Shown in pieces: positions 1 to 5,628 of a stretch of DNA of 5,810 bases. Within the stretch, counting starts at the first letter, position 1. Each line of letters begins with the position of its first letter. The stretch is from Actinomycetes bacterium (GTDB lineage: Bacteria; Actinomycetota; Aquicultoria; CAJVYJ01; JAUVQD01), in contig JAUVQD010000099.1 in NCBI GenBank assembly GCA_030598355.1, positions 1 through 5,810 on the forward strand. The letters run 5' to 3'. Below the pieces are notes generated by a model that searched no databases, was not told where the DNA came from, and saw only the letters and a list, made by a program, of their open reading frames with translations. Both the position numbers and the translations under genes were made by a program.

Positions 1-459
1 CGGGCTGGAACGGAAAACATGCTCGGAATCGTCGGAATGGGTGCGGCAGCTGAGTTGGCCGCAGCTGAAATGGAAGAGAGAAACAAAAAGATTGTGCCGT
101 TGCGGGATCGTTTGATCAAGGGTTTACTAGAAACTATTGACCACGCCGAACTAAACGGTCACCCTAAATTAAGATTGCCAGGCAATGTCCACATCAGGAT
201 CGAATATATTGAAGGCGAATCGATGTTGATAATGCTTGATATGGAGGGTGTCGCAGCAGCCAGCGGGTCGGCCTGCACATCGAGAGCCTTGAAGGCCTCG
301 CATGTTCTGGCCGCGATGGGTGTGCCGCATGAAAAAATTCACGGCTCACTTCTTTTCAGTCTTGGCAAAGAGAACAACGAGAAAGACGTGGACCACGTAA
401 TAAAGGTTTTGGGGCCGATTGTAACCAGATTAAGGTCAATGTCGCCGTTGGCCCAGTGA
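1..459 (+). CDS. Cysteine desulfurase, NifS/IscS type (C-terminal part, 5'-truncated by window edge)
   Basis: PLP-dependent enzyme that takes sulfur from L-cysteine as a protein-bound persulfide and leaves alanine; it supplies Fe-S cluster assembly and sulfur carriers in the cytoplasm. The frame is open from base 1 and begins with RAGTEN, the conserved family motif, so the ATG at 19 is internal. The 152 visible residues are roughly the last 40% of a protein usually near 390-400 aa. The mobile catalytic loop SGSACTS is present, with the active Cys at nt 274-276. Further on, the family motif usually read (I/L)R(F/I)S(L/F)G is LLFSLG here: the Arg expected to bind the substrate carboxylate is Leu (nt 352-354). 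The gene leads a likely operon with a DsrE-like protein and TusA, which are plausible acceptors. The family is certain. The choice between nifS, iscS and a dedicated paralogue is open, so no symbol is given. Confidence 0.95.
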   Translation, partial: RAGTENMLGIVGMGAAAELAAAEMEERNKKIVPLRDRLIKGLLETIDHAELNGHPKLRLPGNVHIRIEYIEGESMLIMLDMEGVAAASGSACTSRALKASHVLAAMGVPHEKIHGSLLFSLGKENNEKDVDHVIKVLGPIVTRLRSMSPLAQ

Positions 460-487
460 TAGAAGAGATATTTAGTTTTTTGTCCAT

Positions 488-494
488 AAGGAGG
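488..494 (+). promoter_or_regulatory. Strong Shine-Dalgarno site for the DsrE-like gene
   Basis: AAGGAGG lies 8 nt before the ATG at 503. It is a near-perfect anti-16S match and fixes that start. The 43-nt gap to the preceding desulfurase gene shows no convincing terminator, which supports co-transcription. Confidence 0.85.
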
Positions 495-502
495 AGTTTG
501 GC

Positions 503-1045
503 ATGAGCGATTCTAAGGCTAAAGAGCCGGTTGCCGCGGCTATGAACGAAATACAAAAAAATGCCGGGACCAAGAAAAAGGTGACAATTGTTGTCTTCAG
601 CGGTGAGCTGGATAAAGTGCTGGCAGCTTTTAATATCGCCACAGGCGCCGCTTCCATGGGCATGGAATGTACTTTGTTTTTTACGTTCTGGGGGCTTAAT
701 GTCCTGAAAAAGAATGACGCCAAGAATACGGCTTCAGGATTGATGAAAAGGATGTTGGGCCGGATGAATAAAGGTGGAAGCCAACGACTACCATTGTCAA
801 AATTTCATATGCGCGGCCTTGGAACCTGGATGATGAAGAAACTAATGAGTCAACATAAGATGCCCACCGTCGATGAGATGATTTCGCTCTCAAAAGAACT
901 AGGAGTTCAGTTCATGGCTTGCACAATCACGATGGGGATCATGGGTATTGAGAAAGAGGCCTTGCGACCCGAGATCGATAAGTTTGTCGGGGTTGTTACT
1001 TATCTGGCGGAGGCCCAGGAAAGCTCCGTTAATCTGTTTATATAG
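503..1045 (+). CDS. DsrE/DsrF/DrsH-like family protein (sulfur relay)
   Basis: A 180-aa cytoplasmic protein of the DsrE/DsrF/DrsH-like (DsrE2-type) family, which is associated with persulfide transfer. Residues about 1-25 are a polar, Lys-rich leader. A Rossmann-like strand (KKVTIVVFSGELDK, about 25-38) opens the domain, followed by a helix and a hydrophobic strand with Cys56 (MECTLFFTFWGL). A long Met/Lys-rich middle section (about 78-122) has the pattern expected of this subfamily, which often carries such an insert. The conserved C-terminal motif is FMACTITMGIMGI, in which Cys140 matches the cysteine found in relatives (the A-C-x-x-S/T-M pattern) and is the likely sulfur-carrying residue. 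The start is fixed by a strong ribosome site. It sits between a cysteine desulfurase and tusA (11 nt to the next ATG), which implies a sulfur carrier or acceptor. The sulfur's final destination cannot be read from the sequence. Confidence 0.88.
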   Translation: MSDSKAKEPVAAAMNEIQKNAGTKKKVTIVVFSGELDKVLAAFNIATGAASMGMECTLFFTFWGLNVLKKNDAKNTASGLMKRMLGRMNKGGSQRLPLSKFHMRGLGTWMMKKLMSQHKMPTVDEMISLSKELGVQFMACTITMGIMGIEKEALRPEIDKFVGVVTYLAEAQESSVNLFI

Positions 1046-1051
1046 AGGTGG
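1044..1051 (+). promoter_or_regulatory. Shine-Dalgarno site that decides the tusA start
   Basis: AGAGGTGG overlaps the stop codon of the upstream gene and sits 5 nt before the ATG at 1057. A GTG at 1048 in the same frame would start inside this ribosome site and has no ribosome site of its own, so the ATG at 1057 is preferred. Confidence 0.65.
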
Positions 1052-1056
1052 AAGAT

Positions 1057-1320
1057 ATGGAAGAGACTGTTGAGATTGGCGACAAAACAATAAAAGTCGA
1101 CGCTGAGCTGGATTGTTTTGGTTTGCTCTGCCCGATGCCAATTGTAAAAACTGCCGCAAAAGTCAAAGAGATTGACGTCGGGCAGGTGCTGAAGGTTGCC
1201 TCCACAGATTTGGGCATCAAAGAAGATATGCCGGTTTGGTGTGCTGAAACAGGAAATGAGTTCTTAGGCGTTAAAGAAGCTGACGGTGAATATTTCGTTT
1301 ACCTGAGGCGATTAGTCTAA
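1057..1320 (+). CDS. tusA: TusA-family sulfurtransferase
   Basis: Small (87 aa) cytoplasmic sulfur carrier of the TusA/SirA/YeeD family. It accepts persulfide sulfur from a cysteine desulfurase and passes it on; known uses include tRNA thiolation, molybdenum cofactor synthesis and dissimilatory sulfur metabolism. The family signature CPMP is at residues 25-28, with Cys25 the expected sulfur-carrying cysteine, followed by IVKTAAKVKEI as the first helix. Cys20 precedes it by five residues, and a further Cys62 lies in VWCAETGNEFL. That stretch has the form usual in TusA proteins that travel with DsrE-like partners. Length is normal (about 75-90 aa). The start is the ATG with the well-spaced ribosome site; a GTG three codons earlier is less likely. 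It is the last gene of the plus-strand cassette and ends 1 nt from the stop of the convergent radical SAM gene. Confidence 0.93.
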   Translation: MEETVEIGDKTIKVDAELDCFGLLCPMPIVKTAAKVKEIDVGQVLKVASTDLGIKEDMPVWCAETGNEFLGVKEADGEYFVYLRRLV

Positions 1321-1343
1321 ATTAGCTAGAGACTTTCTCGCCT
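1306..1343. terminator. Imperfect hairpin spanning both convergent stop codons (possible bidirectional terminator)
   Basis: AGGCGA (1306-1311) pairs with TCGCCT (1338-1343), and AGTCT (1314-1318) pairs with AGACT (1330-1334). A small internal loop (TT opposite TTC) separates the two stem parts, and the apical loop is 11 nt. It covers the ends of tusA and of the opposing radical SAM gene. Neither side is followed by a T-run, so a classical intrinsic terminator is not shown. Its placement between genes 1 nt apart is the main argument for a role. Confidence 0.4.
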
Positions 1344-2824
1344 ATTAAGTCGGCTAGTATATCGTGGACTTTCTTGGGCATTTTTCCGAAACCCTTCATC
1401 TGGTCTGCCAGATAAGAATGAGTTGCCAGTAGCTTGGCCACCGAAATCATGTATTCGCGCTTAAACTTGGTCATATTTGGCAGCTGCGCCATTTTGCCCA
1501 TATAAAACTTCTTGAAGGCGCCCATCAGCTCCCGAGAAACCTGCTCGGTGGTCATCGCTGTTGGCTTTATAACCGGCTCAACCAAGTTATATTTACTGTA
1601 GTCATAGGATTCGATAAAAGGCTTGAGCTCTTCATAGATGTCGGCATATGGCCAAGGGGCAATGGCCAGGAAAAAAGCCAAATCGGGATTGTAATACTTC
1701 GCGAGCTTAACTGTTTCTCTGATCGACTCGGGGGTATCCTCAGGCAGACCGAGGACAAAAGAAGTTTCGGTAATAATGTTGGCCTGGTTTATTAAGTCTA
1801 GGGCTTTCTTTGATTCCTCGACTTTGATGTTCTTTTTGAACCTATCGAGCGTTGCTTGTGAACCAGCTTCAACGCCGAGGTAAATGTGATCAATTCCGGC
1901 TTCACGGTATCGGTCAAGGATAGGTTCGTCCCGGACGATATCGGTAACTCTGGTCTCGAGTAGAATCTCAATCCCGAGATCGCGCTCGATCAAAAGGTCT
2001 AAAACCCTGTGCCAGGCTTTCTCGTCTGTGGTTGGGGCCTCATCGGCTATCATAACCACGTCAACACCAAAATTGCTTTTTAGGTAGGCGAGTTCAGTAA
2101 CAAAATCATCAGGTGTACGGGCTCGCCATCCTTGTTTCCAAAAAAGTTGTTGCGAACAGAAACTGCAAGCCTGCACACAACCCCTGGCATACGACACAAC
2201 GGCCAAAGTTGAATTTGGTGTTGGTCGATAAGTGTAGTCTTTCCATTCAATAAGATCCCAAGCCATCGGTAGACCGCTGAGTGATTCCAAAAACAGTCTC
2301 TCAGGTGTGGCGACAACCTGTTTTTCGACCCGGTAGGCGATACCTTTAACCTCAGAAAGCTTACCGCCGCCGAAATGGCAATCGAGCAACTCAGGCATTG
2401 TTAACTCGCCCTCTCCTCTGACCGCGTAGTCAACAGAAGGATGGTTCTCAAGCATTTCCCGGTAGCAGAAGTTCGCGTGGACACCGCCGATTACAGTCGT
2501 GACATTCGGGTTAAGAGATTTGGCGATGTCGCATATCTTAACGCAATCATTAATTGTTGCCGTTATGGCCCCCGTGGCAATTACATCGGGCGCGCGATCT
2601 TTGATCCGCTCAGTAATAGCCGGCCACTCGTCAAATTTTGACATAGCGTCGTAGATTTCGACTTCATAGCCAGCTGCTCGGAGTGATCCGGCCACGTAAA
2701 CAAGAGACAGAGGCATCCAAGTACCAGCTGACTCGACAACGCCGCAATGATATGGCGGTGTAATCAACAAGACTTTGCGTCTTTTTTTACCATTCGGCCC
2801 AGAGGACAAAGTGAAATTAGTCAC
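1322..2824 (-). CDS. BchE-like cobalamin-binding radical SAM protein
   Basis: Predicted 500-aa enzyme with an N-terminal B12-binding domain (about residues 15-150: KVLLITPPYH, then YVAGSLRAAGYEVEIYD, IGGVHANF and RGEGE) and a radical SAM core (about 205-420). The core carries GCVQACSFC, a CxxxCxxC [4Fe-4S]/SAM motif with Cys 216, 220 and 223. Several C-terminal blocks (ETRVTDI, NPD, APWPY, DYSKYNLVEPVIKP, FYMGKM, FKREYM) match what I recall of BchE, the oxygen-independent Mg-protoporphyrin IX monomethyl ester cyclase. No DxHxxG cobalamin-ligand motif is evident. No other bacteriochlorophyll gene is visible, so true BchE activity is not implied; a tetrapyrrole or other unactivated-carbon substrate is inference. 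The start is taken as GTG 2824, with AGGAGC 5 nt upstream. A GTG at 2842 in frame lacks a ribosome site. It has its own promoter and lies downstream of cytochrome c maturation genes. Confidence 0.88.
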   Translation of the reverse strand: MTNFTLSSGPNGKKRRKVLLITPPYHCGVVESAGTWMPLSLVYVAGSLRAAGYEVEIYDAMSKFDEWPAITERIKDRAPDVIATGAITATINDCVKICDIAKSLNPNVTTVIGGVHANFCYREMLENHPSVDYAVRGEGELTMPELLDCHFGGGKLSEVKGIAYRVEKQVVATPERLFLESLSGLPMAWDLIEWKDYTYRPTPNSTLAVVSYARGCVQACSFCSQQLFWKQGWRARTPDDFVTELAYLKSNFGVDVVMIADEAPTTDEKAWHRVLDLLIERDLGIEILLETRVTDIVRDEPILDRYREAGIDHIYLGVEAGSQATLDRFKKNIKVEESKKALDLINQANIITETSFVLGLPEDTPESIRETVKLAKYYNPDLAFFLAIAPWPYADIYEELKPFIESYDYSKYNLVEPVIKPTAMTTEQVSRELMGAFKKFYMGKMAQLPNMTKFKREYMISVAKLLATHSYLADQMKGFGKMPKKVHDILADLIGEKVSS

Positions 2825-2829
2825 ATAAA

Positions 2830-2835
2830 GCTCCT
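2830..2835 (-). promoter_or_regulatory. Shine-Dalgarno site that decides the radical SAM gene start
   Basis: Read on the minus strand, AGGAGC lies 5 nt before GTG 2824. An ORF start at GTG 2842 would put this site inside the coding region, so the shorter 500-aa product is preferred. Confidence 0.65.
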
Positions 2836-2869
2836 GACACACTCGTTTGTAGGCAGTTAGAACCTATAA

Positions 2870-2898
2870 ATTATACCAGAATAAGGACCATGGGTGAA
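2870..2898 (-). promoter_or_regulatory. Predicted sigma70-type promoter with extended -10 for the radical SAM gene
   Basis: On the minus strand, TTCACC (2898-2893, 4/6 match to TTGACA) is followed by a 17-nt spacer and a perfect TATAAT (2875-2870). The spacer ends in TGG, giving the extended -10 form TGnTATAAT. Transcription should start near 2863, leaving a leader of about 40 nt before GTG 2824. It lies in the 108-nt gap behind the small membrane protein gene, so the radical SAM gene can be expressed apart from resB-ccsA. Confidence 0.65.
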
Positions 2899-2932: not shown

Positions 2933-3370
2933 TTATTGATTTGGCGCCACACGTTTTGTTAAATCCGGTTCCTTGCTGGTTGTATCACTTTCTATTCCAT
3001 ATGTTTGGCGCAGTTTAATGACTTTTTGGTTTAGCTTTTTCCACGAGTAGATGCCTCCGCCGACCAAGCCAAAGATTAATACATGTTTCATGATTAACAC
3101 CGGAACCATGTTCTTGCCGACCGCCTGCGCCCACTCAAATTCCTGGAAATTGATTAGCCTGAAGACCCCGGCGACAATTATCCAGACAAACGCGCCCCGG
3201 CCGAGAATGGTTAAGCGGCGATAAGAATCCAAAAAATATTTGATGACGGCTTGATCGTTAGTGTCCTCGGCGGCTTTTGCGAAATAATAGACAACCACAC
3301 CACTGGTCATGAGTAGAGCCGTAGCAAGGTCATGGAAGTAATTGTTAAGCATGATGATAATATTTAGCAC
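2933..3370 (-). CDS. Small three-helix membrane protein of unknown function, in the cytochrome c maturation cluster
   Basis: I do not recognise a named family with certainty. The 145-aa product has three likely membrane helices (about residues 12-31, 57-73 and 88-108) and a polar, charged tail (about 110-145). One histidine lies at the start of helix 1 (FHDLATALL, His13) and another in helix 3 after Lys (IMKHVLIFG, His96). This layout recalls heme- or metal-binding membrane proteins such as CopD or HemJ, but that is only pattern similarity. A GTG start at 3370 is preferred because AAGGGA lies 8 nt upstream; ATG 3352, six codons in, has no ribosome site. It follows ccsA by 91 nt on the same strand. 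That position suggests a role in heme handling, or as an accessory to a membrane cytochrome, but the sequence does not prove it. Confidence 0.75.
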   Translation of the reverse strand: MLNIIIMLNNYFHDLATALLMTSGVVVYYFAKAAEDTNDQAVIKYFLDSYRRLTILGRGAFVWIIVAGVFRLINFQEFEWAQAVGKNMVPVLIMKHVLIFGLVGGGIYSWKKLNQKVIKLRQTYGIESDTTSKEPDLTKRVAPNQ

Positions 3371-3461: not shown

Positions 3462-4295
3462 TTAGTTGATGTGAACGCGGCTGCCGATGTCAAAGACATG
3501 AAATGTTGACCCGGGCGGAAAATAGGTCATTAGCCAGTAGGCGGCGATTACGGTGATCATTGAGATGATCGCCAGCCACGACAGGCGGCGAGAGTCCCAT
3601 GCAAATGACTTTTTTAGGTGAATAAAAAGCGCATAAAGAAACCAAGACGCCAAGGTCATCGATTCAATCGGATCCCACCGCCACCAGGTGCCGAAGACGA
3701 TAAACTCATAGTAGGCTCCGCTGGCTAAGGTGAACGTCTGCGTCACAAAACCAAAAATTATGTATTTCATAAGCCAGTCATCCATTACGCCTAAAGACGG
3801 AAGGTTGAGAAAGGGTAGGTGTTCGCGCGCATTCGCCAAGATCAAAACGGCGATGATAAACGCCAGCGTGTAGCTGCTATAAGAGAACCAGGCAAAAGTG
3901 GCGTGCAGATCGACCCACAGGCTCTGCTCCGAAATAGTCAATGGGAATCTCGTGCTATCAAAACCAACACCAAAAGCGATTATCGCAAGCGCCATAGGCG
4001 TCGTGAATAGGCCGATTACCTTTAGCCAAGGAGTTTTTTTCGAGATAACCAAACCAAATAGAATGACAAACCAGGAACCGGCCAGGGCATTTTCGAAGCT
4101 ACCGAAAACCGGAGGGTGTCCGGTCGAAATCCAGCGCGCGATAATTGAAACGGTTTGGCTGATAAATGCCGCGGCGCTTAAGATAAGGGCGACAGAGTTT
4201 AGTTTGTCAGAACGCCAGACTATAGCAGCGATATAGAAGCAAAACGCCAATACAAAGAGGATAACCGCAATTGATAACGCCCAGGTCTCAACCAT
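3462..4295 (-). CDS. ccsA: System II cytochrome c biogenesis protein CcsA (ResC/CcsB type)
   Basis: Polytopic membrane protein (277 aa, a usual length) of the heme-handling CcsA/CcmC superfamily. With ResB it exports heme and ligates it to CxxCH apocytochromes outside the membrane. The diagnostic Trp-rich WWD motif is present as FGTWWRWDPIESMTLASW (residues 201-218), followed by YALFIHLKK. Expected conserved histidines are visible: His60 in TGHPPVFGSFENA, His131 in LWVDLHATFAWFSY, His226 after the WWD segment, and His266 in the C-terminal STFHVFDI. About eight hydrophobic segments can be drawn, beginning at residues 5-27. The ATG lies inside the end of resB (8-nt overlap), which implies translational coupling; only a weak GGA-type ribosome site precedes it. 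Naming varies: the same protein is called ResC, CcsA or CcsB in different organisms. Confidence 0.95.
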   Translation of the reverse strand: MVETWALSIAVILFVLAFCFYIAAIVWRSDKLNSVALILSAAAFISQTVSIIARWISTGHPPVFGSFENALAGSWFVILFGLVISKKTPWLKVIGLFTTPMALAIIAFGVGFDSTRFPLTISEQSLWVDLHATFAWFSYSSYTLAFIIAVLILANAREHLPFLNLPSLGVMDDWLMKYIIFGFVTQTFTLASGAYYEFIVFGTWWRWDPIESMTLASWFLYALFIHLKKSFAWDSRRLSWLAIISMITVIAAYWLMTYFPPGSTFHVFDIGSRVHIN

Positions 4296-5628
4296 CTGAT
4301 TTCCACTGTTTTATTTGTTTCGCCAGGTCTTGCAGGTCCATAATTGCTTTATTGGGAAAGTAGTCGTCCCGCAGGTGCAAATGTATTACCTGGATGTTTT
4401 TGTCAGACACTCCTACCGCAGTGAAATCCTTGCGAAAGAAGACGAGCCGCCAGACAAGGCCGGTTAATCCAGCTAAAAAACCTAGCCATATAAAGATCAG
4501 CCCGGGATTATGGATTATCTTAAACTGTCCCCAATAGACCATCTTGGGAAAAGATAGGTGAAAGCGGCCGACGTCAATAGATTCATTTGGCCGGACAAAC
4601 TGCTTTGCAATGGTCGTATCGCCCATAGCCAAGCGGACGCCGTACCCAAGCTGTTTAAGATTATTAGACTTGTTTGTGATATTTCCTTTATCTTTTCGGA
4701 AGTCTGGAAAGACTTTGACGTTTACAATATAGGGGATAGCGCTCAGTCGAAAACTATCTTCGATACCTGGCGGAAAAGTGGCTAGGTTGACATAGCCCGA
4801 TTCGACCTCGACGCCGTCGTCGTCGACCAGGCGGTAGAAAGGCGCGTAGCCGATTCCGACCAGCGTAACGTAAGTTGTCAACGTGGGCTTCCAGGCTTTT
4901 GTTAAAAGCACTAGATCTTCCCTTTTTGATTCAAGGGGTTGAATTGTGGCCCTCATATCAGTGAAAAGAAGTTCATCTTTCCAGAAACGCGCCGAGATCT
5001 TTTTGACCTTGAAACCGAACTTAGGCATTCTGTCCTTGGTATTTCTCGGTTCAACTTGTATCAAACGATCGCTTTGCTCAGTGGTTAAGGTATCTCCCTC
5101 GGCTACAATTGCTTGGGCTTGCGTCCGGAGCATGGGGCTAATCAGGATGCCAAACACAATAAAAAAAAGGGCGAAGTGAAAAAAGAGCGTTCCTAAAGAG
5201 GAAAGCCGCCAGCGAATCGCCCTCAGGGTCGTTTTATCCGCATTTAATACAGTCTTGTAGCCGCGGGCGCGGAATCGGGCGCCCAGCTTCGACATGATTT
5301 CGTGAGCCGAAAGAGCTGACTCTACCGTTATGTAATTACGCTTTTTTTTCAGGGATTCGACGGTCGGCTCAGATTTGTCGAGCTCCACGTTACTAATAGC
5401 AATGGAAAAGTAACGGATCATACAGAAGAGATTATTTACAACAAAAAGTGTTAGCCAAAACTTCATGGGCAGTGAGTTTGCTATCAGAATTACCTGGGAG
5501 CTTGGGCTAGCGGCCGCCCAAGCCAGGAGCATTATGCCGTATACAGTTCCCGAGACGAGAAGAAAAATATTGAGTGTTTTGGAGCTGAGTAAATTGAAGA
5601 CCGCGGTCGCTCGTGACGCTTTTTCCAT
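4288..5628 (-). CDS. resB: System II cytochrome c biogenesis protein ResB (Ccs1)
   Basis: Membrane partner of CcsA in the System II synthetase (446 aa, at the short end for ResB). Layout is typical: helices at about residues 19-40 and 57-79, a cytoplasmic loop, helix 3 at about 145-165 (GTLFFHFALFF, His151), a large extracytoplasmic domain (about 166-370), helix 4 at about 376-398 preceded by IIHNPG (His373), and a soluble tail. The two membrane-edge histidines match the conserved heme-ligand positions of the family. An in-frame TAA 9 nt upstream rules out a longer product, and no ribosome site precedes the ATG. A weak promoter ends only 8 nt before it, so the message may be nearly leaderless. 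It is the first gene of the minus-strand cluster. No ResA or CcdA (thiol reduction partners) is in the window. Confidence 0.93.
   Translation of the reverse strand: MEKASRATAVFNLLSSKTLNIFLLVSGTVYGIMLLAWAAASPSSQVILIANSLPMKFWLTLFVVNNLFCMIRYFSIAISNVELDKSEPTVESLKKKRNYITVESALSAHEIMSKLGARFRARGYKTVLNADKTTLRAIRWRLSSLGTLFFHFALFFIVFGILISPMLRTQAQAIVAEGDTLTTEQSDRLIQVEPRNTKDRMPKFGFKVKKISARFWKDELLFTDMRATIQPLESKREDLVLLTKAWKPTLTTYVTLVGIGYAPFYRLVDDDGVEVESGYVNLATFPPGIEDSFRLSAIPYIVNVKVFPDFRKDKGNITNKSNNLKQLGYGVRLAMGDTTIAKQFVRPNESIDVGRFHLSFPKMVYWGQFKIIHNPGLIFIWLGFLAGLTGLVWRLVFFRKDFTAVGVSDKNIQVIHLHLRDDYFPNKAIMDLQDLAKQIKQWKSDG

What the first reader, a model, noticed from the sequence alone, without database searches (positions are those of the whole stretch)
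1322..2824. BchE-like B12/radical SAM enzyme beside cytochrome c heme-handling genes, with no visible chlorophyll genes
The C-terminal blocks and the CxxxCxxC core look like the anaerobic Mg-protoporphyrin ester cyclase, yet the neighbours are resB, ccsA and a His-containing membrane protein. One reading is a tetrapyrrole-modifying or anaerobic heme-related enzyme working with cytochrome maturation in a non-phototroph. The domain assignment is seen in sequence and recalled family knowledge; the heme link is inference from gene order, and the gene has its own promoter.
Basis: partly seen in the sequence, partly recalled or inferred. Interest (0 to 1): 0.7.

Follow-up and report, generated by a model that had tools for sequence, protein, structure and literature searches.

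The report
BchE-like enzyme tied to cytochrome assembly
A vitamin-B12 radical enzyme, sister to an enzyme that makes chlorophyll, often sits in one gene cluster with the genes that build c-type cytochromes, in bacteria and archaea of several phyla, and it likely alters heme without oxygen before that machinery would attach it to electron-carrying cytochromes.

Summary
The gene at 1322-2842(-) is a B12-binding radical SAM protein nearest BchE (404.8 bits, below the 481.35 cut-off). In a tree its family stands beside, not inside, five BchE proteins. BchH was found in 0 of 14 genomes and BchM over cut-off in 0 of 9. The ccsA/resB link recurs across phyla and in archaea: of 85 loci, 42 hold CcsA, 36 ResB, 34 both, 40 the small membrane protein 'C3'; 61 hold at least one of CcsA, ResB, C3 or a second B12-radical-SAM protein. 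Same-strand partner genes lie upstream 128 times and downstream 12 times. None of 16 other B12-radical-SAM loci from nine of these genomes' set holds CcsA, ResB or C3. In the window's class, ResB-type matches occur in 9 of 11 genomes with the enzyme and 0 of 25 without, as I count them. BchE-specific residues are kept, and the window's genome has other heme-synthesis genes. Best reading: an anaerobic heme-side-chain oxidase feeding a System II cytochrome c synthase. Linkage and phylogeny are shown; substrate and chemistry are inferred.

The parts
1322..2842 (-). BLR: BchE-like B12-binding radical SAM protein, 506 aa (likely start 2824, 500 aa)
   Evidence: tree; conserved residues; model pLDDT 89.1, best PDB match AprD4
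2173..2179 (-). start of the CxxxCxxC radical SAM cluster motif region (codons for C222, C226, C229 lie at about 2156-2179)
   Evidence: residue numbers converted to window coordinates; sequence
2870..2898 (-). promoter-like site before BLR (weak)
   Evidence: 10 of 12 consensus match, but site number equals chance
2933..3370 (-). C3: small membrane protein, 145 aa, invariant N9 N10 H13 D14 A18 G68 R71 E79 K95 G106, nearly invariant H96
   Evidence: 1043 relatives at E up to 1e-5 among 7999 scored candidates, none of the 120 listed with a Pfam domain; model pLDDT 78.6 with three long helices; weak, below-cut-off likeness to CopD and Caa3_CtaG
3462..4295 (-). CcsA-type cytochrome c assembly protein, 277 aa, with a WWRWDP motif at residue 204
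   Evidence: PF01578 79.3 bits over cut-off; CcsB model TIGR03144 96.3 bits, below its 187.6 cut-off; motif
4288..5628 (-). ResB-type protein, 446 aa, overlapping ccsA by 8 bases
   Evidence: PF05140 66.4 bits over cut-off; coordinates

Best explanation
A B12-binding radical SAM protein whose family is the sister of BchE lies in one gene cluster with genes matching the cytochrome c synthase proteins ResB and CcsA and with a small His-containing membrane protein, and it likely oxidises a side chain of heme without oxygen so that the neighbouring synthase would export and attach a modified heme to multiheme cytochromes. Inferred steps: heme b comes from the cell's ordinary pathway; the enzyme uses cobalamin, a [4Fe-4S] cluster and SAM to abstract hydrogen from a heme propionate and to hydroxylate, desaturate or cyclise it, in the manner of BchE on Mg-protoporphyrin monomethyl ester; C3 hands the product to CcsA-ResB at the membrane. 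In other genomes a second B12-radical-SAM protein, a LuxE-like carboxylate-activating protein or an SRPBCC (hydrophobic-ligand) domain joins the cluster, which fits a short tailoring pathway. Shown here: phylogeny, gene linkage, absence of two tested chlorophyll genes, presence of other heme-synthesis genes. Not shown: substrate, product, and the role of C3.
For: Family beside BchE, 38 rows at 99/95 support against 5 BchE rows at 100/100. Positions fixed in BchE and kept in 36 of 36 family rows but absent in four or more of six other B12-radical-SAM rows, such as E37, G40, W42, M67, E359, W397, P398, Y418, N419, P423, P427. CcsA in 42, ResB in 36, both in 34, C3 in 40 of 85 loci, 128 same-strand partner genes upstream against 12 downstream. 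Controls: 0 of 16 paralogue loci and 0 of 5 BchE loci (short flanks) with CcsA, ResB or C3. Class co-occurrence: ResB-type in 9 of 11 genomes with BLR and 0 of 25 without; C3 in 6 of 11 and 0 of 25. Multiheme cytochromes in 25 of 85 loci. No BchH in 14 of 14 genomes, no BchM over cut-off in 9 of 9. HemE, HemH and HemY in the window's genome.
Against: No direct evidence on the substrate. 24 of 85 loci hold none of CcsA, ResB, C3 or the second radical SAM protein (7 of these have under 2.2 kb of upstream sequence), and a Coriobacteriia-type group (L019, L020, L034, L035) lacks them in full-length loci. Two BLR genomes of the class show no ResB (75% and 74% complete). LuxE-like and SRPBCC partners would also suit a lipid or polyketide-like substrate. 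Most CcsA-ResB loci lack RS2, LuxE and SRPBCC, so the fuller pathway is not universal. Genomes and loci are related, so the Fisher values overstate independence.
Confidence: 0.45

Rival explanations
1. BLR acts on a hydrophobic non-tetrapyrrole molecule (lipid, quinone or similar) that the cytochrome system or its membrane needs; heme is not its substrate.
For: LuxE-like neighbour in 17 of 81 loci and SRPBCC (polyketide cyclase/lipid transport) domain fused or nearby in 17 of 85 loci; the next named families after BchE include hopanoid enzymes HpnR and HpnJ.
Against: BchE scores 404.8 bits, HpnR 141.9 and HpnJ 110.3; BchE-specific residues are kept; the most frequent partners are heme-handling CcsA and ResB.
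Confidence: 0.2
2. BLR is a methyltransferase, like most B12-radical-SAM enzymes, and methylates heme or a cytochrome polypeptide before maturation.
For: Most cobalamin-dependent radical SAM enzymes are presumed methylases (PMC13142503, passage); the best PDB matches include the methylases TsrM, MgmA and TokK; association with cytochromes.
Against: The closest family, BchE, is a non-methylating oxidase (PMC13142503, abstract), and its signature residues are kept.
Confidence: 0.17
3. BLR supplies a missing anaerobic step of ordinary heme synthesis, such as propionate-to-vinyl conversion, near the site of heme use.
For: AhbD, the known heme synthase of the siroheme route, passes its cut-off in only 7 of 13 genomes; the window's genome has one copy at 451.3 bits, below the 500 cut-off.
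Against: Seven BLR genomes do have AhbD over cut-off; the window's genome has HemE, HemH and HemY over cut-off beside the AhbD-like gene.
Confidence: 0.12
4. BLR is a true Mg-porphyrin cyclase, or a relict of chlorophyll synthesis.
For: [quoted passage not shown]
Against: Below the BchE cut-off, outside the BchE clade, no BchH in 14 of 14 genomes, no BchM over cut-off in 9 of 9, different fixed residues.
Confidence: 0.03

Closest known systems
BchE, anaerobic Mg-protoporphyrin IX monomethyl ester cyclase (TIGR02026)
   Same: B12-binding plus radical SAM architecture, CxxxCxxC core, many BchE-specific fixed residues
   Different: Below the curated cut-off, separate clade, other fixed residues (N296 to E, S321 to Y, W391 to F, Y394 to I; BchE first, window numbering), no BchH or BchM found, CcsA/ResB neighbours
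System II cytochrome c biogenesis (CcsA/CcsB-ResB)
   Same: ResB and CcsA genes overlap in the window and are the commonest partners together with C3
   Different: An added B12-radical-SAM enzyme and C3; I know of no description of such parts in System II (recalled; searches listed none that I could see as such)
bchE homologues reported in Binatota and other non-phototrophs (PMC8262859, passages read)
   Same: bchE homologues without bchM in genomes without reaction centres, called gene 'shrapnel' there
   Different: The passages read do not mention cytochrome maturation; whether those genes belong to this family was not tested
Heme-route radical SAM enzymes AhbD/AhbC/NirJ
   Same: Radical SAM enzymes acting on heme precursors (PMC10452713 and PMC12505453, search listing only)
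   Different: Separate families; in G000 the AhbD-like protein is another gene on another contig

Membership tests
B12-binding radical SAM proteins | B12-binding and Radical_SAM domains over Pfam cut-off with CxxxCxxC | tested here: met
   PF02310 101.5 and PF04055 86 bits; C222/C226/C229 invariant in 71 rows
BchE (TIGR02026) | score over the curated cut-off 481.35 | tested here: not met
   404.8 bits
BchE (TIGR02026) | placement inside the BchE clade | tested here: not met
   five BchE rows form a 100/100 clade without the window's family; both join at 96/83 (only five BchE rows, from plasmids)
BchE (TIGR02026) | Mg-porphyrin pathway in the host (BchH, BchM) | tested here: not met
   BchH 0 of 14 genomes, BchM over cut-off 0 of 9; incomplete bins among them
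BchE (TIGR02026) | cyclase activity | not testable with these tools
   needs an anaerobic assay
System II cytochrome c biogenesis | ResB and CcsA proteins side by side | tested here: met
   PF05140 and PF01578 over cut-off, genes overlapping by 8 bases; TIGR03144 below its cut-off (96.3 of 187.6)
HpnR hopanoid C-3 methylase | score over cut-off 650 | tested here: not met
   141.9 bits
CopD / Caa3_CtaG (for C3) | Pfam gathering score | tested here: inconclusive
   window C3: no CopD or CtaG row at E up to 1; among 61 members 30 hit CopD and 16 hit Caa3_CtaG, best E 6.3e-4 and 7.5e-5; the scores shown were below cut-off

The most novel reading that the evidence does not exclude
Anaerobic bacteria and archaea that live by multiheme cytochromes carry a dedicated, oxygen-free heme-tailoring pathway, a B12-radical-SAM sister of BchE coupled to its own CcsA-ResB synthase, which makes a so far unseen modified heme c (for instance with an oxidised or cyclised propionate) for extracellular or long-range electron conduits; chlorophyll's ring-forming enzyme and this heme enzyme are two branches of one ancient anaerobic tetrapyrrole chemistry.
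Probability: 0.33. Interest if true: 0.92.

Novelty: new variant of a known kind. Interest (0 to 1): 0.72.

Why it matters
Proteins now named anaerobic chlorophyll cyclase in public annotation would belong to cytochrome maturation instead. If so, c-type cytochromes of Nitrospirota, Methanoperedens-type archaea and some Actinomycetota may carry a heme that nobody has looked for, with consequences for redox potential and for electron transfer to minerals and partner cells. It would also offer a dark, anaerobic setting for BchE-type chemistry, and it makes the puzzling pattern 'bchE without the other bch genes' testable by one mass spectrum.

Tried and rejected
Chlorophyll synthesis: rejected. 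Replacement of ordinary heme synthesis: made unlikely by HemE/HemH/HemY in G000 and AhbD over cut-off in 7 of 13 genomes. A window-only accident: rejected by 85 loci and the controls. C3 as a HemJ homologue: a thought from memory (His in helix 1, Lys in helix 3); no HemJ row was shown in the Pfam scan of 61 members (25 of 29 families shown), so it is not claimed. Fold search of the C3 model gave no match at E up to 0.001, and the second look returned generic helical pairs; this says nothing either way. Shared contig lengths between the BLR and C3 hit lists (5 shared values of 120 and 120) were dropped as evidence, because chance coincidences among short contigs could be of that order.

Papers, all by search listing unless said otherwise: none held BchE, ResB, cytochrome c and radical SAM together, none held bchE and multiheme cytochrome, 3 held CcsBA and radical SAM, and searches listed none whose title or abstract start describes this family. 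Passages were read in PMC13142503, PMC11208441, PMC8262859 and PMC7943316. Only open-licence PubMed Central is searched, so a paper not held may exist. The archaeal cytochrome nanowire paper that I wanted is not held.

Rows dropped before counts: L029 (53-residue match), L117 (same contig as L017), L232 (same locus as L022), and one weak SRPBCC hit (L192, 17.5 bits). Of 57 matches, 55 were fetched; the other two are in L023 and L025. In one search, nine genomes ring for ResB only through a C-terminal stretch of 53-84 profile positions, eight in frames of 646-694 aa and one in a 302-aa frame; four of the nine pass the cut-off with their neighbours. I counted these nine as CcmF-like rather than ResB; that is my reading and was not tested. 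Counted as ResB instead, the figures would be 9 of 11 against 9 of 25.

Full report
WHAT IS IN THE WINDOW. On the minus strand, in transcript order, lie resB (5628-4288), ccsA (4295-3462, overlapping resB by 8 bases), a 145-aa membrane protein that I call C3 (3370-2933) and the B12-binding radical SAM protein that I call BLR (2842-1322). The gaps are 91 bases before C3 and 90 or 108 before BLR, by the start chosen. Convergent on the plus strand are the end of a NifS-type cysteine desulfurase, a DsrE2-type protein and a TusA-type protein. The window is a whole 5810-base contig of a 1.54-Mb genome in 260 contigs, 87.9% complete.

WHAT BLR IS. The best NCBIfam model is BchE at 404.8 bits, under the 481.35 cut-off; the next is HpnR at 141.9. 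A maximum-likelihood tree of 53 rows puts 38 family rows (99/95), including the window and two long-branched rows (G131, G048_b), beside a 100/100 clade of five BchE proteins taken from annotated plasmids; the two groups join at 96/83. Two proteins annotated bchE (Sphingobium, Allocoleopsis) and two paralogues of the window's genome fall outside both. The root is a midpoint, and HpnR or HpnJ were not rows. In 36 family rows, many positions fixed in all five BchE rows are kept that are absent in four or more of six other B12-radical-SAM rows (E37, G40, W42, M67, H319, E359, W397, P398, Y418, N419, P423, P427; H319 in 35 of 36 rows, the others in 36 of 36), while others are fixed or nearly fixed to a different residue (BchE N296, S321, W391, Y394; here E, Y, F, I). 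I read this as a related but changed substrate pocket; that is inference, since no residue was placed on a structure. The AlphaFold2 model (pLDDT 89.1) matches AprD4, TsrM, MgmA, OxsB and TokK best among solved structures.

THE LINK TO CYTOCHROME C ASSEMBLY. Profiles for CcsA, ResB, C3, BLR and a second radical SAM protein (RS2) were run over loci of up to about 17 kb. The 85 distinct loci are 27 from the first searches, 54 from 295 sampled genomes of the Thermodesulfovibrio phylum (49 of them with BLR), and 4 from 392 sampled genomes of the Methanoperedens phylum (4 of them with BLR, one already counted as L018). CcsA is in 42, ResB in 36, both in 34, C3 in 40 (partly a shorter variant with weak scores but the same HD and KH motifs), RS2 in 20, and a protein with three or more CxxCH in 25; 61 hold at least one of CcsA, ResB, C3 or RS2 and 24 none. 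Of the 24, 7 have under 2.2 kb of upstream sequence. In the archaeal phylum, 4 of 5 loci hold both CcsA and ResB. On BLR's strand 128 partner genes lie upstream (in 55 loci) and 12 downstream (in 10 loci); 12 are on the other strand. The profiles for CcsA and ResB were built from the first loci, so those members match by construction. Loci come from related species and are not independent.

CONTROLS. Sixteen loci of other B12-radical-SAM genes from eight of the same genomes hold none of CcsA, ResB or C3; one (L129) holds a ten-CxxCH protein. Five BchE loci, with 1-3 kb flanks, hold none. For the first 27 loci against the 16 controls, Fisher's test gives 0.0013 for CcsA plus ResB (12 of 27) and 5.6e-5 for any partner (16 of 27); relatedness is ignored there.

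CO-OCCURRENCE. In 36 genomes of the window's class, BLR is in 11. ResB-type matches are in 9 of these 11 (the two misses are 75% and 74% complete) and in 0 of 25 without BLR, if nine C-terminal-only matches that I read as CcmF are set aside; counted as ResB they would make it 9 of 25. C3 is in 6 of 11 and 0 of 25. ResB also rings in 5 of 14 control genomes; whether those hold BLR was not tested with the BLR profile, but System II of Bacillus is known to work without such an enzyme (recalled). So BLR looks like an addition to System II in certain lineages.

WHAT ELSE TRAVELS WITH IT. RS2 is 66% identical between an Actinomycetota locus (L120) and two Nitrospirota loci (L022, L023), and 80% between those two. 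A LuxE-like protein (PF04443, 57.5 bits in the member scanned) is in 17 of 81 loci. An SRPBCC domain (PF10604) is fused to BLR's C-terminus in 8 loci and separate in 9 more, one of these a short piece right behind BLR. A protein of about 160 aa with a lipoprotein-like start is in 13 of 81 loci, between CcsA and BLR or RS2 where I looked. Cytochromes beside BLR match Cytochrome_C7, Paired_CXXCH and MtrC/MtrF-like models; one archaeal example has 42 CxxCH and is followed on the same strand by ResB, CcsA and BLR. None of these extras is in the window.

HEME SUPPLY. BchH was found in 0 of 14 genomes and BchM over cut-off in 0 of 9 (all 9 with only weak generic matches), so BchE's substrate is not expected. 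The window's genome has an AhbD-like gene (451.3 bits, cut-off 500) followed by HemE, HemH and HemY, these three over cut-off. AhbD passes its cut-off in 7 of 13 genomes. Ordinary heme therefore seems to have its own enzymes, which argues for a tailoring role of BLR.

MECHANISM (inferred). BchE needs SAM, cobalamin and a low-potential reductant, installs a ketone and closes a ring on Mg-protoporphyrin monomethyl ester (PMC13142503, abstract). BLR plausibly does a related oxidation on a heme propionate in the cytoplasm; where present, the LuxE-like protein could supply the carboxylate activation that methylation gives in chlorophyll synthesis, and the SRPBCC domain could hold the hydrophobic intermediate; C3 and CcsA-ResB would take the product across the membrane and attach it. 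Each of these steps is a prediction.

PRIOR WORK. The Binatota paper (PMC8262859, passages) reports bchE homologues without bchM in non-phototrophs as gene 'shrapnel'. An actinobacterium on a biocathode with 18 c-type cytochromes is described in PMC7943316 (passages); its relation to this family was not tested. The Borg paper PMC11208441 (passages) reports many multiheme cytochromes in Methanoperedens and its Borgs; I saw nothing there on this enzyme. My searches listed no paper that I could see to link a BchE-like protein to cytochrome c maturation.

VERDICT. Phylogeny and gene linkage are firm; heme tailoring is the best explanation but unproven.

Noticed in passing
window 1-1320 (+): NifS-type cysteine desulfurase end, DsrE2-type and TusA-type sulfur-carrier genes in a row, convergent with BLR; the same order is kept in the same-genus copy L016.
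   Followed up: partly
L022:4015-5388, L023:6238-7575, L120:6969-8399: RS2, a second B12-radical-SAM family beside BLR, C3 or CcsA, in 20 of 85 loci.
   Followed up: partly
L221, L222, L224, L225, L228, L229, L234, L237: BLR with a C-terminal SRPBCC (polyketide cyclase/lipid transport) domain fused on.
   Followed up: partly
for example L211:10753-12267(-), L200:6030-7529(+): LuxE-like proteins beside BLR in 17 of 81 loci.
   Followed up: partly
L249:3-5447(+): An archaeal open frame (cut by the contig start) with 42 CxxCH motifs, followed by ResB, CcsA and BLR.
   Followed up: no
L022:1402-2793 and 9461-10759: Two FtrD-like membrane iron-sulfur proteins (PF10080) flank the Thermodesulfovibrio locus.
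   Followed up: no
L123 (G000 contig C93): The window's genome has a second ccsA-resB pair, with a stronger ResB score and no BLR on its 5159-base contig.
   Followed up: partly
L019, L020, L034, L035: A Coriobacteriia-type BLR group without CcsA, ResB or C3 nearby but with its own shared neighbours.
   Followed up: no
L153 (G000 contig C14) 1305-5883: AhbD-like, HemE, HemH and HemY genes in a row, a mix of siroheme-route and classical heme genes.
   Followed up: no
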